This document shows positions 1,863 through 58,027 of a stretch of 62,206 bases of DNA, piece after piece (within the stretch, counting starts at the first letter, position 1; each line of letters opens with the position of its first letter). A program made the translations under genes and the position numbers. The stretch covers positions 35,141-97,346 of the forward strand of contig MU619305.1 in NCBI GenBank assembly GCA_025201805.1. Reading direction: 5' to 3'. A model generated the notes under the pieces. The model made no database searches. It had not been told where the DNA came from and saw only the letters and a list, made by a program, of their open reading frames with translations. The DNA is from Parasitella parasitica (Eukaryota; Mucoromycota; Mucoromycetes; Mucorales; Mucoraceae).

Positions 1863-3114
1863 TTAAACAGAGGCTTGAATGGCGGGTTCAACAAAATCTT
1901 TGGATGCCTTGGCACCAGTGTCATCACCAGCAGCGGCAGCACCACCATGAAGAGCCAAGAGAGCAGAGACATCAAACTTGGGTGCCTTGAGAATCTTGAC
2001 TTTGCGGGTGTAAGTGTTTTGGAGAGGGTAGATACCTTGACAGGCCTTCTCAATACGGACGGCAATGGCATCTTGGGCAGATTGAGAGGCAGAGGAGGTA
2101 ACCTTGGCAACCAATTCCTTAAGGTCACAAGTAACGGCTTCCTCAGTCATGATCTCAAACATCTTTTTACGGATTTGGCGGATTTGAGCCGATTGAGCAT
2201 AGGTAGTCTTTTTGATTTGGTTGCGACGGCGAGAAGTGAAGGAGACGGCAAAAATACGAACAAGATAACCATCGGTGGTCTTGATATCAACGAAAGCCTC
2301 AATCAAAGATTGCCACTTCTTGACCATGGAACGGAGCTTGTCGGTGGTCATGTCCATGCGGTAAAAGTTGGTGAGACAGTTCTTGCCTTGGATTTCGTCA
2401 ACCTTCAATTGGATCTTACGGAAAGAACGAGACTCGTCTTTGGAGAGATCACCGAGAGACATCTCGACAACACGACCATTGAGAGAGTCGTTGGCGTTGC
2501 GGAGACCCTGAGTACGATTGACAAGAGTCTTACCGACTTGGCGAACATCAAACATGGAAGGAGCTTTGATGTCATACCAATCCTTGCGGGTGAAAGGGTC
2601 AACGCTACAAGAACATAAGTCTATCTATCCTAATACTAATGAATCCCTTAGATTGAACGCATGCATGTGTAAAGTCAAAAAATCCAGTGTCCCTTTGCTG
2701 TTGATCTTGCAATTTATTCTCTATTTGAGCTCGATGATTTTGTTGGATTAGTGTTGAATATTTCTATTCTATATTGTAAATCAAATTTCCAAAAGGCGCA
2801 TTTATATTAGTTTTAGCTTCTCCAATGTCGAAACAAAATAAACTGAATAGAAGTGTTCCACATGCATACTATCAAAATTAAGGCTTCATAATATAATGTA
2901 TACTTACATCTTCTTCTTCAAACCCTTCTTTCCTTTACTAAGACGCCTATTGAACACAAGAAAAAATCAGTTAGGTGTCCAGAAGTATATTAGAAAAGAA
3001 GAATATTTTCTTACTTGTTCTTGCCAACAGCTAATTCGATGCAATAAAAAAATATGATTGATTAGTTTCGATGGATGGATGGATGGATGGACAGTCGATA
3101 TGTGTATTACCCAT
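1863..3114 (-). CDS. RPS3A: 40S ribosomal protein eS1 (RPS3A / yeast Rps1)
   Basis: Component of the small ribosomal subunit near the mRNA exit and platform. Four coding exons on the minus strand: 3111-3114 (ATGG only), 3015-3030, 2908-2946 and 1863-2604. Joined, they give 266 residues, close to the family length of about 255-265. The start reads [15 protein letters not shown], followed by [20 protein letters not shown] and, near the C-terminus, [20 protein letters not shown], all eS1 hallmarks. All introns are GT-AG and phases match. The first exon holds only the start codon plus one base, and exon 2 is 16 nt, so ORF finders start far too late at 2555. Intron 1 contains a (GATG)n run. The gene stands alone between a gene-poor stretch and a Helitron relic. 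Confidence 0.97.
3070..3091. repeat. (GATG)n microsatellite in RPS3A intron 1
   Basis: About five tandem GATG units lie inside the first intron of RPS3A, between the 4-nt first exon and exon 2. Simple tandem repeat, no coding role. Confidence 0.9.
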
Positions 3115-33137: not shown

Positions 33138-34786
33138 ATGATGAAACGCAAACAACGTAAACAACGCAAGAATTTGAAAAAGAAAAAAAACCATAGCTAT
33201 AAAGACATATCGGCTCAAGAAAACCCAGAGTTTCAAGATACGTTTAGAATTAACCAAGCTCTGAGGACAGAAAATTACAACCTATTGAGAGAGATTGGCC
33301 AAGAAACTGGCTTCGTAAGCGATGCTATTCGAAGAAGAGTATGGTACCGTGTTTTTTATGTCACACTCAAACATGCGTTCTGATTTTTGGAGATGTATGT
33401 AGGCCTTTTTTATTGCATTGTACCGACATAAATCAAGTAAAAGTTACCGAAGGTTCTTTGGATGGTATGCAAAGCATACTCTAGTATGGTAAAACTCTAT
33501 TAAGGAAAAACAACTAAATTTTGTACATAGCTCCACACAAGGACGAAGAACAAGTCAAGTTAGATGTCGTTCGTTCGTTCAATACATTCCCTAAAAGTAA
33601 ATTTGTACAAAGAGGGGGGGGGGGACAGGAGAGCAGTGTATCTGATTAAATTGATACGTAGATGTCAACAAAGAGGACAAAGCGAAGCTTCAAGACCAAT
33701 TGAAACGTGTAATAGTACATGTATTGCGATCGTATCCGTCATTGCATTATTACCAAGTAAGTAAAAGCTGCTACAGCAATCGAATGTATTTGACAGGTAT
33801 TTTCTGTAGGGTTTTCATGACATTTGCTCAGTATTCATTCTGTTATTCGGTGAAAAGTATGCTTGCAAGTTAATGGAGCCTGTTGCACTGTTTTTCTTGA
33901 GATATCCTTTTTTTATGCTCAAAAACTAATAATATGCCTTGCACTTTGTTATATCGTCCTTAACCTTTACTTACAGATGAGATGTATGTGACAATGGAAC
34001 CTGTTTTGAAACAATTGACAATTTTGGATACGATTATTCGACTAGAAGATCTGGAATTGTACGAGTTTATTGCAGAGTAAGGCGTTATCAGTTCATTCAC
34101 ATATAACAAGAAATTGACACCGTAATTGCATCAGAGCAGGAGTTTTACCGTATTACTCTCTCTCTTGGGTTATTACATGGTGTAGCCATGATTTAGATGA
34201 TTTAGAAAAGATTACTCGACTTTTTGATCTGTTCTTATCATCTAACCCATTCATGGTTGTTTATTTTGCTGCGGCGGTGGTTCTGTCTCGACGAGAGCAA
34301 GTACTAGATTTGCCTTGTGATACAAGCACTATTCATAGCTTCCTCACCAAATTACCAAAAGACTTGAATGTGGATTTTTTGTGTCAAACGGCCTGTGAAC
34401 TGGAGGAGAAATACTCTGTTTTTGAAATACAATGTCAAAGCACTATCGCGTTAGATCAAGTGTCAGCAATCAACCGATATGCACAAGACTGGCTATCACT
34501 GACTTCTTTACAAGCGTTTAATGATATAATCAAAAATAAGATTATCCCTATCTTGCAAGATAAAAATGAACGCAAGCCAATTAAGCTTACACCGATCTTG
34601 GCAACCTCACAGCACGTAAATCAATCTAACACTATCTTGCAAAAATTGCGACAACTGGATAAAAAAGATGCCTTTTTCTACGCTTTGCTCACTGTTGGAA
34701 CTGGTGTTGGTTTAGTGGCTATATTTATGTCAAATTCAGATCTCATTAGGTACAGTCAAAAAATACTCGTATATAAATGTATATAG
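33138..34786 (+). CDS. TBC-domain Rab GAP, TBC1D20/Gyp8 type, with a U12-type intron
   Basis: Seven exons: 33138-33343, 33403-33464, 33531-33596, 33662-33756, 33810-33901, 33975-34076 and 34135-34786, giving 424 residues. TBC landmarks appear in order: IRRRVWPFLL, DEEQVKLDVVRSF, RSYPSLHYYQGFHDIC, LRDEMYVTMEPVL, SLSWVITWCSHD and VYFAAAVVL. The C-terminus has a membrane anchor (LLTVGTGVGLVAIFMS), as in TBC1D20 and Gyp8. These are ER-anchored GAPs for Rab1/Ypt1-class GTPases. Intron 5 (33902-33974) is AT-AC with U12-type signals and is the only join that keeps frame. Intron 3 contains a run of 11 G. The start at 33138 is the first in-frame ATG. The last codons could change if a short intron follows LIR. 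Confidence 0.9.
33902..33974 (+). other. U12-type AT-AC intron
   Basis: The intron begins ATATCCTT, a perfect U12 5' splice site. It ends TTAC, with TCCTTAAC at 33957-33964 as the branch site about ten bases before the 3' end. Removing exactly these 73 bases joins TTG-AG to A-GAT-GAG, giving LRDEM, which matches the family. GT-AG alternatives around it bring in a stop codon. Confidence 0.88.
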
Positions 34787-34891
34787 AAAAATTAATTAAA
34801 TTATTCTTACAAGGGAGTGGATGATAACAGGTGTATAGTAGTTATATGACAATTAATAAAGGTCTAAGCGTATGTAAAAGAAGAAATGGGT

Positions 34892-51242: not shown

Positions 51243-51848
51243 ATGAATTATTGTAGTATAAGAAATGATAATGAAAGAATAGATAAGCCTCGTCCTTATC
51301 AATGTCCAATGTGTCCAAAGGCTTTTGTCAGATTGGAACATCGAACTCGACATATTCGAACTCATACAGGTGAAAAACCGCATGCCTGCTCTTTTCCAAA
51401 TTGCGAAAAGAGGTTCTCTCGCTCAGACGAATTGACTCGTCATGCCCGTATCCACATTGTGCCATCAAGGCGGAGCAGAGAAAAGAGAGCCAGCAGTACA
51501 GTAATTCGGCCTATGCTATTGCCAGTCAGATCAAGCATACCATCAAGTTCAATACTACTGCAGCAGCAAAAAGGATCGTACTTAACCGACTCTTATCCAT
51601 CGTCAATATCAGATTCTGAAAGCGAACACATCTGCACTCCAGATAGTTCCCCTACTTTGGGCCCATCGTTTAAACACCACAGTTCCAGTCTGACATTGCC
51701 TCCTCTTTTGATAGGCGCTTCTCATCATGGAAATCAACATGTGCCTTCTCCAAATCATCGTTCTCCTATCCTTGCATCTCCTCATCCTCAATCATATCGT
51801 CCACATTCTGAAATACATTTACCATCTATCAGATTCTTATTAGAATAG
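51243..51848 (+). CDS. CreA/Mig1-type C2H2 transcription factor
   Basis: Single exon, 201 residues. Two adjacent C2H2 fingers occupy about residues 18-75: [20 protein letters not shown] then [20 protein letters not shown]. Finger-helix residues RLEHRTRH and RSDELTRH are those of CreA/Mig1, which bind GC-rich SYGGRG boxes and repress genes under glucose. The rest is Ser/Pro/His-rich without recognised repression motifs. It is shorter than Ascomycete CreA (about 400 aa), so it could be a paralogue with a different role. The long upstream intergenic region suggests complex regulation. Confidence 0.93.
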
Positions 51849-56102: not shown

Positions 56103-58027
56103 ATGTCACTCGATAAAGAAGTTTACAATAACAGCATGAACGAAGAAACACCGCTTTTAAACACTTCTTCTTCTACATCCTCATATGATTGCTGCTCAGA
56201 AGCAGATTGCTGCAGGAAACAGCAAGACAAGGCTCCCTCTTCTACAAAGCTATTTATTTCATCAGCTACAGATGGTGACGACGATCCAACTTGTCAATTG
56301 TCGAATCAGCCATGGAAATACAAAATTGTCGCTTTACTTTGTGCCATGTTTCTAGCGAGTAAGTGCAATAGACTATAGTTGATTGGGTTTTGCTCTAGTG
56401 ACTAACTCCTTTTCACATAGTGGGTAGCCATTTTGCTGCTCATACACTAGGCGCAATGAAATCCACGATTAAAAAGGTAGGACATATTCTAAATGCTTGC
56501 GAAAATATGCGTATTGATAGTTCAAAAATTACCAGGAATTTGATATCTCTAATTCTCAATACGGTGTGCTTCAATCCAGCGTATCCATCGTAAATACTGT
56601 TTTGCCACTTATTGGTGGTATTTTCATAGACGCATTTGGCACCATTCCTGGTTCTATTCTCACAACTGTCCTGATTGCATCGGGTAATATTCTAGTGGCT
56701 GCTTCCACGTCAACAACAAATTTATCCATGATGATCTTTGGTCGCATACTATATGGCATTGGTAGTGGCACGGTAGTCATTGTTCAAGAGACAATATTGA
56801 GTCAGTGGTTCCAGGGTCGAAGTCTTGCAGCTGTGATTGCGCTGATGATGACCGTCAGCAGATTGGTAATTGCTTTTTTAAATAGGTTCAACATACATGT
56901 CGTCAACTGACGTTTTTTTGTTTTGTTTTTTTGTTTGGTGATAGTCATCGTTTTTAGCTCAAGCTACCGTGGTACCAATTGCAAAGTGGTCGGGTTGGTA
57001 TGGTTACGGCTTCTGGGTAAGTATCTTTTCCATCATGTGTCGATTATTCCTTGGGTTATTAATGTATGTAACAAATACAGTTTTCTGCTATGCTCTGTGT
57101 GTTTTCTTTATTGATCAACCTCGTATACATTGCCTTGCTGAAAAATTTATCTACTTTGACCGACCAAAAGAATTGCCAAGTTCAGCGTAATGTGATTAAG
57201 CGCAAGAAATCGTTTAGTTGGTCTAAACTGATGTTTTTACCACATTCTTACTGGTTGATTGCATGCATGGAATTCTTGCTCGGTGGTGCTTGGGGCTGCT
57301 TTCTTCATATCAACAGGTAAAAAAAAAAAAAAAGCATCAATGATCCAATCCAGTATAGATGGAGGAATCTAACATGTGCAACAGTGAATTTGTGAAATTC
57401 CGTTTTGGCTATAACGATGGAAAAGCAGCTGCAGTCGCCAGCGTTGCTCAAATGCTTCCTATCTTTATCATGCCCTTTTTAGGGTTTTTCGTTGACAAAT
57501 TCGGCAAACGAACTTGGATGATGATGGGCAGCGCCTCCACATTCCTAGCATCCCTTTTGTTGCTGAAATATACCGATTTGAATCCACTGGTTGGCATGAT
57601 CAGTTTCAGCGCTAGTTTGGCGTTGGGACCCGTCGCTCTTGTCTCGTCGATCCCGGTCATTTTACCTCTATCACTTGTCGGCACCGGCATGGGCCTCGTA
57701 AAGTCAGGCACCAACATTGGCGCTTCTTTATTTGATATTGTTACTGGGCTATTGCAGGACCATGATTCCGAAAAGGGCTACAGTGGCGTAATAGACTTTT
57801 TTGTTATTATCGGTATCCTGTCCTTGCTGGCGGGTGTTACTCTATGCATCTTGAATCGTACTATCTATGGCAACATACTAGATGCTCGTAGATCTGACGC
57901 CAACAAAAACAGCGGCGATAAACGTTTGTTGATGAATAAGAGACTAAGAATCAACTATCTTTATGGTGGTGTCTATGTCTCGCTAGTGATTGTCAGCTGG
58001 GTGCTATTCTTTAAATATGTTCTTTGA
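56103..58027 (+). CDS. MFS transporter, MFSD1 type
   Basis: Six exons: 56103-56358, 56421-56476, 56536-56865, 56945-57016, 57081-57316 and 57385-58027, encoding 530 residues. The N-terminus has an acidic dileucine-like EETPLLN, a common lysosome/vacuole sorting signal, then about 12 hydrophobic helices. Signature pieces: ISNSQYGVLQSSVSIVNTVL, GRILYGIGSGTVVIVQETIL, WFQGRSLAAVIALMMTVSRL and FGYNDGKAAAVASVAQML. These match MFSD1-like proteins, which export dipeptides from lysosomes in animals. The vacuolar role here is inference. The last intron uses the acceptor GTGCAACAG at 57384 with a CTAAC branch; the nearer AG at 57358 leads to a stop. Confidence 0.92.

What the first reader, a model, noticed from the sequence alone, without database searches (positions are those of the whole stretch)
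33902..33974. U12-type AT-AC intron in a TBC1D20/Gyp8-like Rab GAP gene
The intron starts ATATCCTT and has TCCTTAAC about ten bases before a terminal AC, a textbook minor-spliceosome pattern. Only excision of exactly these 73 bases yields the conserved LRDEM of the TBC domain. GT-AG alternatives hit stop codons. Seen in sequence: signals and frame. Known: U12 introns and their snRNAs survive in a few early-diverging fungi, including Rhizopus, but were lost in most others. Inference: this organism has a working minor spliceosome.
Basis: partly seen in the sequence, partly recalled or inferred. Interest (0 to 1): 0.75.

Follow-up and report, generated by a model that had tools for sequence, protein, structure and literature searches.

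The report
Minor-spliceosome intron in a fungal gene
A gene of the mould Parasitella parasitica is interrupted by a rare kind of intron that only the minor spliceosome removes; such introns are known in related moulds, but this one appears to be shared by several of them and to upset some of their public gene models.

Summary
Bases 33902-33974 form a 73-nt AT-AC intron with a perfect U12-type donor and branch site, the branch A 11 nt before the terminal AC. Apart from a one-base slide, no other excision tried restores LRDEM. The spliced gene encodes 420 aa identical to a deposited Parasitella parasitica Rab-GAP. The claim that GT-AG alternatives hit stops is only partly right: 7 stay open but delete 9-54 residues. 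The 30.7-Mb genome holds U12, U4atac and U6atac candidates and a U11/U12-65K homologue; U11 was not found. A pattern census gave nine AT-AC introns and one GT-AG intron in coding genes; the AT-AC bias may be real or an artefact. The intron is probably old: three other Mucorales models and one of Entrophospora read through its donor, and 10 of 22 named models are broken here against 8 of 110 at five other internal junctions. Minor introns in Mucorales were already in print, so this is a new member of a known kind. No RNA evidence was available.

The parts
33138..34838 (+). TBC1D20/Gyp8-like Rab GAP gene, 8 coding exons, 420 aa
   Evidence: Spliced model identical to P0001 of Parasitella parasitica; Pfam RabGAP-TBC; TBC1D20 entry 4hl4, E 2.2e-50. 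Searches used an earlier 409-aa model.
33902..33974 (+). AT-AC U12-type intron, phase 2, 73 nt
33902..33909 (+). U12-type 5' splice site ATATCCTT
   Evidence: predicted pairing with the U6atac 5' region, -7.2 kcal/mol
33957..33964 (+). U12-type branch site TCCTTAAC, inferred branch A at 33963
33810..33901 (+). Exon upstream of the intron (GFHDIC...ALFFL, ends in AG of the Arg codon)
33975..34076 (+). Exon downstream of the intron (A of the Arg codon, then DEMYVTMEP...)
33757..33809 (+). Neighbouring GT-AG intron, phase 0
34077..34134 (+). Neighbouring GT-AG intron, phase 2

Best explanation
A genuine AT-AC minor intron, probably old in Mucoromycota, removed by the minor spliceosome from the mRNA of a TBC1D20-like Rab GAP. 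Inferred steps: U11 and U12 recognise ATATCCTT and TCCTTAAC together; U4atac/U6atac with U5 joins; U6atac replaces U11 at the donor; A33963 attacks the donor, and the exons are joined between 33901 and 33975. Shown from sequence: the signals, the frame, the identical deposited protein, U12, U4atac and U6atac candidates with the expected pairing segments, a 65K homologue, and nine further U12-type introns in the genome (eight AT-AC, one GT-AG). Retention would stop translation after about 182 of 420 residues, inside the TBC domain, so splicing here is required for a full-length product. Whether the fungus uses this as a control point is unknown.
For: Signals and restoration of LRDEM. Product identical to deposited Parasitella P0001. 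Own-genome U6atac 64.5 bits (cut-off 33), U12 49.1 (cut-off 53), U4atac 47.9 (cut-off 53); U4atac/U6atac duplex -39.1 kcal/mol against a shuffle mean of -23.6. 65K homologue, 100% identical over 95% of the query to Parasitella P0224 on a contig of the same length as G000:C1, with some relatives named SNRNP65, RNPC3 or RBM40. Strict pattern 8 times in the genome, 0 in the backward control, about 1 in simulation; all 8 join open frames at a YAC, in 7 of 8 cases 11-13 nt from the branch A and in one 17 (the pattern itself asks for YAC or YAG 4-18 nt on). Read-through and broken models of relatives point to the same intron.
Against: No RNA evidence. U11 was not found by Rfam or by two patterns, although Lichtheimia's was found by others (PMC4133162, passages). 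U11-48K and CENATAC searches were inconclusive. U12 and U4atac score just below Rfam cut-offs. Pfam sees only one RRM in the 65K candidate, and its best solved-structure match is the paralogue RBM41. At least one of 300 shuffles reached the U4atac/U6atac duplex energy (minimum -40.3). The scan of U12 against the intron chose an overlapping pairing further 3' rather than the canonical branch site; the canonical pairing with a bulged A is read by eye.
Confidence: 0.95

Rival explanations
1. The intron is AT-AC but removed by the major spliceosome, as some AT-AC introns are (stated in a passage of PMC8280824).
For: Major AT-AC introns exist; U11 was not found.
Against: Donor and branch site match the minor consensus at every position with the usual spacing, and minor snRNA candidates are present.
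Confidence: 0.03
2. The true intron has GT-AG ends and the gene makes a slightly shorter protein.
For: Seven GT-AG pairs keep the frame open; several database models skip the LRD stretch.
Against: Each of the seven loses 9 to 54 residues, including residues shared with the TBC1D20 structure entry; the deposited Parasitella model and several Mucorales models keep them.
Confidence: 0.015
3. Chance resemblance or a pseudogene; no intron here.
For: Each motif alone is common.
Against: The spaced pair is expected about 0.002 times per window; retention hits two stops; the other exons are intact and match a deposited protein.
Confidence: 0.005

Closest known systems
U12-type introns of Mucorales (Rhizopus oryzae, Phycomyces blakesleeanus; PMC2846911, passages read)
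   Same: Same donor consensus, AT-AC subtype present, minor snRNAs present, same order.
   Different: There GT-AG is about as common as AT-AC or commoner (Phycomyces 8-9 AT-AC against 8-12 GT-AG by two methods; Rhizopus 1 against 2-3). Here 9 AT-AC against 1 GT-AG were found by pattern. TBC1D20 does not appear in the passages read; supplements were not read.
Minor introns of Rhizophagus irregularis and Basidiobolus meristosporus (PMC10639083, passages read)
   Same: Early-diverging fungi with a minor spliceosome; vesicle-mediated transport over-represented among Rhizophagus host genes.
   Different: 205 and 249 minor introns are reported there; ten were found here by strict patterns, a lower bound.
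TBC1D20 (PDB 4hl4, 4hlq)
   Same: TBC domain aligned over query residues 37-282, including the IRRxVW and YYQG stretches.
   Different: Whether animal TBC1D20 has an intron at this place, and of which type, could not be tested here.

Membership tests
U12-type (minor) intron | 5' splice site RTATCCTT | tested here: met
   ATATCCTT at 33902
U12-type (minor) intron | Branch site TCCTTRAC with branch A roughly 8-20 nt before the 3' splice site | tested here: met
   TCCTTAAC, 11 nt; the usual range is recalled
U12-type (minor) intron | AT-AC or GT-AG termini | tested here: met
   AT-AC; only a one-base slide is equivalent
U12-type (minor) intron | Removed by the minor spliceosome in the cell | not testable with these tools
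   Needs RNA and depletion experiments
Organism with a minor spliceosome | U12, U4atac, U6atac snRNA genes | tested here: met
   One candidate each; U12 and U4atac score a little below Rfam cut-offs
Organism with a minor spliceosome | U11 snRNA gene | tested here: inconclusive
   No Rfam match up to E 10, 39 of 2584 first-look candidates scored; pattern hits are coding or near background
Organism with a minor spliceosome | U11/U12-65K (RNPC3) protein | tested here: met
   L043, second-best hit of the human 65K RRM, 365-aa open frame, relatives named SNRNP65, RNPC3, RBM40. Against: Pfam finds one RRM only, and RBM41 is the top solved-structure match; a further RRM-like segment is seen by eye. 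The best hit, L042, is U1A/U2B''-like.
Organism with a minor spliceosome | U11-48K and CENATAC | tested here: inconclusive
   48K: 15.8 bits, below cut-off, two control genomes rang as well, locus not 48K-like; CENATAC: nothing rang, controls included
TBC1D20/Gyp8 Rab GAP | TBC domain closest to TBC1D20 | tested here: met
TBC1D20/Gyp8 Rab GAP | Rab1 GAP activity, ER tail anchor (recalled for TBC1D20) | not testable with these tools
   A hydrophobic stretch (ALLTVGTGVGLVAIFM) is seen near the C-terminus; activity not tested

The most novel reading that the evidence does not exclude
Parasitella, and perhaps its close relatives, keep a small minor-intron set that has become almost purely AT-AC, usually with a run of T after the donor. 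Comparison among Mucorales, where Phycomyces is balanced, would then show how the AT-AC subtype comes to dominate and whether subtype factors such as CENATAC track it.
Probability: 0.3. Interest if true: 0.55.

Novelty: new member of a known kind. Interest (0 to 1): 0.4.

Why it matters
Minor introns are lost from most fungi, so each lineage that keeps them helps to date losses and to test why the machinery persists. The practical point: an AT-AC intron that annotators may not expect coincides with broken models of a conserved Rab GAP in 10 of 22 named Mucorales proteins; the same may hold for the DCP2, prefoldin, PPME1 and DIS3-like genes listed here, which was not tested. A fungus with few minor introns would also be a small system in which to test what loss of minor splicing does.

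Tried and rejected
U11: the Rfam search of the genome gave nothing. Pattern AAAAGGRNTTCT...AATTTTTGG gave one hit, which lies in a coding frame. A looser pattern gave 8 hits, that one among them, against 5 in the backward control. L052 (C4:205467-205561) has a 5' AAAAAGGATA able to pair with the donor over 10 bp and a predicted hairpin after an Sm-like site, but no U11 match in Rfam (5 of the 7 new loci were given: L052, L053, L055, L057, L058), so it stays an unsupported candidate.

U11-48K: a weak Pfam hit was inspected and rejected. The protein search for 48K found 562 proteins and listed 120, none of them named as fungal, so it says nothing about fungi. CENATAC: nothing rang, controls included.

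Candidate minor introns: of 24 relaxed AT rows, 7 repeat strict hits; of the other 17, 16 were rejected by eye (no acceptor in range, no good joined frame, or inside a coding frame) and one, L036, was accepted through a second branch site. Of 5 relaxed GT rows, L013 was accepted, L015 left open and 3 rejected. L004 has two possible acceptors three bases apart; the one ending CAC was used.

The backward control of the pattern tool is lower than my hand estimates from base composition (no call), so it was not relied on alone. Whether the deposited P0001 model rests on RNA is not known; its contig length (169,584) differs from G000:C69 (165,021), while P0224's equals C1. P0005, a 418-aa frame with LRDEM on a contig of only 1,332 bases, may come from RNA, but its source is not shown.

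Full report
What is there. The window lies in a 30.7-Mb genome of 232 contigs, at C69:35141-97346. The gene at 33138-34838 has eight coding exons. Its 420-aa product is identical to P0001, a Rab-GTPase-TBC protein deposited for Parasitella parasitica. A second own-genome protein (L043) is 100% identical over 95% of the query to Parasitella P0224 on a contig of 583,194 bases, the length of C1. The organism is therefore taken as Parasitella parasitica, Mucorales. A second Parasitella record, P0006, is only 73% identical, so either two divergent genomes carry that name or that model is badly damaged. The protein has a RabGAP-TBC domain, and its only solved-structure relatives at E up to 0.001 are two TBC1D20 entries.

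The intron. Six introns have GT-AG ends; the fifth of seven, 33902-33974, has AT-AC ends. It has a perfect minor donor and branch site, with the branch A 11 nt from the end. Among the excisions tried, only this one and its one-base slide give LRDEM and an open frame. The statement that GT-AG alternatives hit stops needs correcting: 7 GT-AG and 8 GC-AG pairs of 95 stay open, but the seven GT-AG ones lose 9 to 54 residues, the LRD stretch included. Retention gives ...ALFFLRYPFFMLKN and two stops. The paired motifs are expected about 0.002 times in a window of this size, from one hit in 30 Mb simulated, although each motif alone is common.

The machinery. U6atac scores 64.5 bits over a cut-off of 33. 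U12 scores 49.1 and U4atac 47.9, each a little below the cut-off of 53. U12 keeps GAGTAAGGA for branch pairing and an AATTTTTGG Sm site. By eye its third stem pairs poorly and its last stem is short, which agrees with a report that these are features of basal fungi (PMC4133162, passages). U6atac keeps GAAAGGAGAGAA. U4atac and U6atac can form a duplex of -39.1 kcal/mol; 300 shuffles averaged -23.6 with a minimum of -40.3, so it is strong but not beyond every shuffle. The predicted U12-intron duplex picked an overlapping site; the canonical bulged-A pairing is read by eye. A search with the human 65K RRM gave 12 hits: the best, L042, is U1A/U2B''-like on reverse search; the second, L043, has relatives named SNRNP65, RNPC3 or RBM40 among the 120 of 393 listed, many others there being unnamed or hypothetical. 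Against a plain 65K reading, its best solved-structure match is the paralogue RBM41, ahead of RBM40, and Pfam finds one RRM; a second RRM-like segment near its start is seen by eye. U11, U11-48K and CENATAC were not found, and those searches do not show absence.

Other minor introns. A strict pattern hits 8 places, with none in the backward control and about one expected by simulation (the simulated pattern lacks the final acceptor term and uses the window's composition). All 8 begin ATATCCTT and all 8 join open frames at a YAC; some joined frames are short, the shortest 21 and 37 codons. A relaxed AT pattern gave 24 rows against 3 in the control, adding one accepted intron (L036). A relaxed GT pattern gave 5 rows against 0, one accepted (L013). 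Host families: TBC1D20; CDC24 OB2, inositol polyphosphate kinase, prefoldin, Sds3-like, DCP2 and RNB/DIS3-like; PPME1; a cullin-2-like protein (E 2.8e-4; no Pfam or NCBIfam match); and one unidentified gene (L010). The match crosses the junction for TBC, prefoldin, DCP2, RNB, PPME1 and the cullin; it does not for IPK, CDC24 and Sds3. Phases are 1 in six, 0 in two, 2 in two. Nine of ten are AT-AC. At equal strictness the count is 8 to 0, unlikely under the human share of about 26% (p 2e-5) or a Phycomyces share of 8 of 18 (p 0.0015). The patterns demand a near-perfect consensus and short introns, so the bias is provisional and ten is a lower bound.

Conservation. Among 103 homologues, three Mucorales models read straight through the donor, giving RYPFF after the conserved Arg: P0010 Mucor saturninus, P0013 Helicostylum pulchrum, P0014 Choanephora cucurbitarum. 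P0054 of Entrophospora (a glomeromycete, recalled) reads RYPL. RYPFF fits RTATCCTTTTT-like DNA, a minor donor of A or G type. Seven models carry Thr where Arg belongs, just before the downstream exon (P0011, P0012, P0013, P0022, P0050, P0076, P0081), which is what an AC acceptor read in frame gives. Against a uniform picture, P0081 (Jimgerdemannia) reads RDIPIP at the donor, which does not fit the same donor position. A Mesostigma protein (P0093) reads RYPP, too weak to use. Motif matches elsewhere in P0057, P0079, P0081, P0082 and P0085 lie outside the junction and were dropped. Of 22 named models taken from the top 24 rows (the reference P0001 and unnamed P0005 left out), 10 are broken at this junction (11 by eye, with P0010), against 2, 1, 2, 3 and 0 at the five other internal junctions (8 of 110, p 4e-5). 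The last junction, before a 25-base terminal exon, is broken in 12 of 22; including it, the contrast is 10 of 22 against 20 of 132 (p 0.002). Exon-internal control windows in the variable C-terminal part score as badly or worse (11 to 16 of 22 at residues 330-370), and the window at residue 160, next to the junction, 6 of 22. The DNA of these relatives was not seen, so conservation is inferred from protein models.

Comparison with print. Minor introns and snRNAs in Rhizopus oryzae and Phycomyces were reported in 2010 (PMC2846911, passages), and a 2023 survey found many in Rhizophagus and Basidiobolus and no convincing ones in Ascomycota and Basidiomycota (PMC10639083, passages). In Lichtheimia four of five AT-AC splicing RNAs were found, U4atac not (PMC4133162, passages); in Apophysomyces assemblies U4atac and U12 were not found (PMC5604411, passages). 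Searches pairing TBC1D20 with U12-type or minor intron, minor introns with Mucoromycota, minor spliceosome with Mucor, and U12 with Mucorales showed no paper on this intron (listings and the passages named, the one paper not opened, supplements not read). The AT-AN subtype depends on CENATAC in human cells (PMC8280824, passages), which makes its presence in this fungus worth testing.

Verdict.

Noticed in passing
G000 loci L004, L005, L006, L007, L008, L010, L011, L036: Eight further AT-AC U12-type introns in coding genes (CDC24 OB2, IPK, prefoldin, Sds3-like, PPME1, unidentified, DCP2, RNB/DIS3-like); all end YAC.
   Followed up: partly
L013 (G000:C43:131492): The only GT-AG U12-type intron accepted, in a cullin-2-like gene, with ACCTTGAC as branch site.
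   Followed up: partly
L052 (G000:C4:205467-205561): Stretch with AAAAAGGATA, an Sm-like site and a predicted following hairpin, near a stretch that reads N; weak, unsupported U11 candidate.
   Followed up: partly
Database proteins P0003, P0004, P0006, P0009, P0011-P0015, P0022: Public gene models of Mucorales broken or reading through at the AT-AC intron.
   Followed up: yes
window 33614-33624; L041 within 1441-1760: Runs of 10 or more G in an AT-rich genome, the first inside a GT-AG intron of the same gene.
   Followed up: no
window 1866-2555 (-), 51243-51848 (+), 57359-58027 (+): Open frames elsewhere in the window match ribosomal S3Ae, C2H2 zinc finger and MFS transporter families.
   Followed up: no
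Database proteins P0001 and P0006: Two proteins filed under Parasitella parasitica match the window gene at 96% and 73% (409-aa model), so the name covers two divergent genomes or one model is badly damaged.
   Followed up: no
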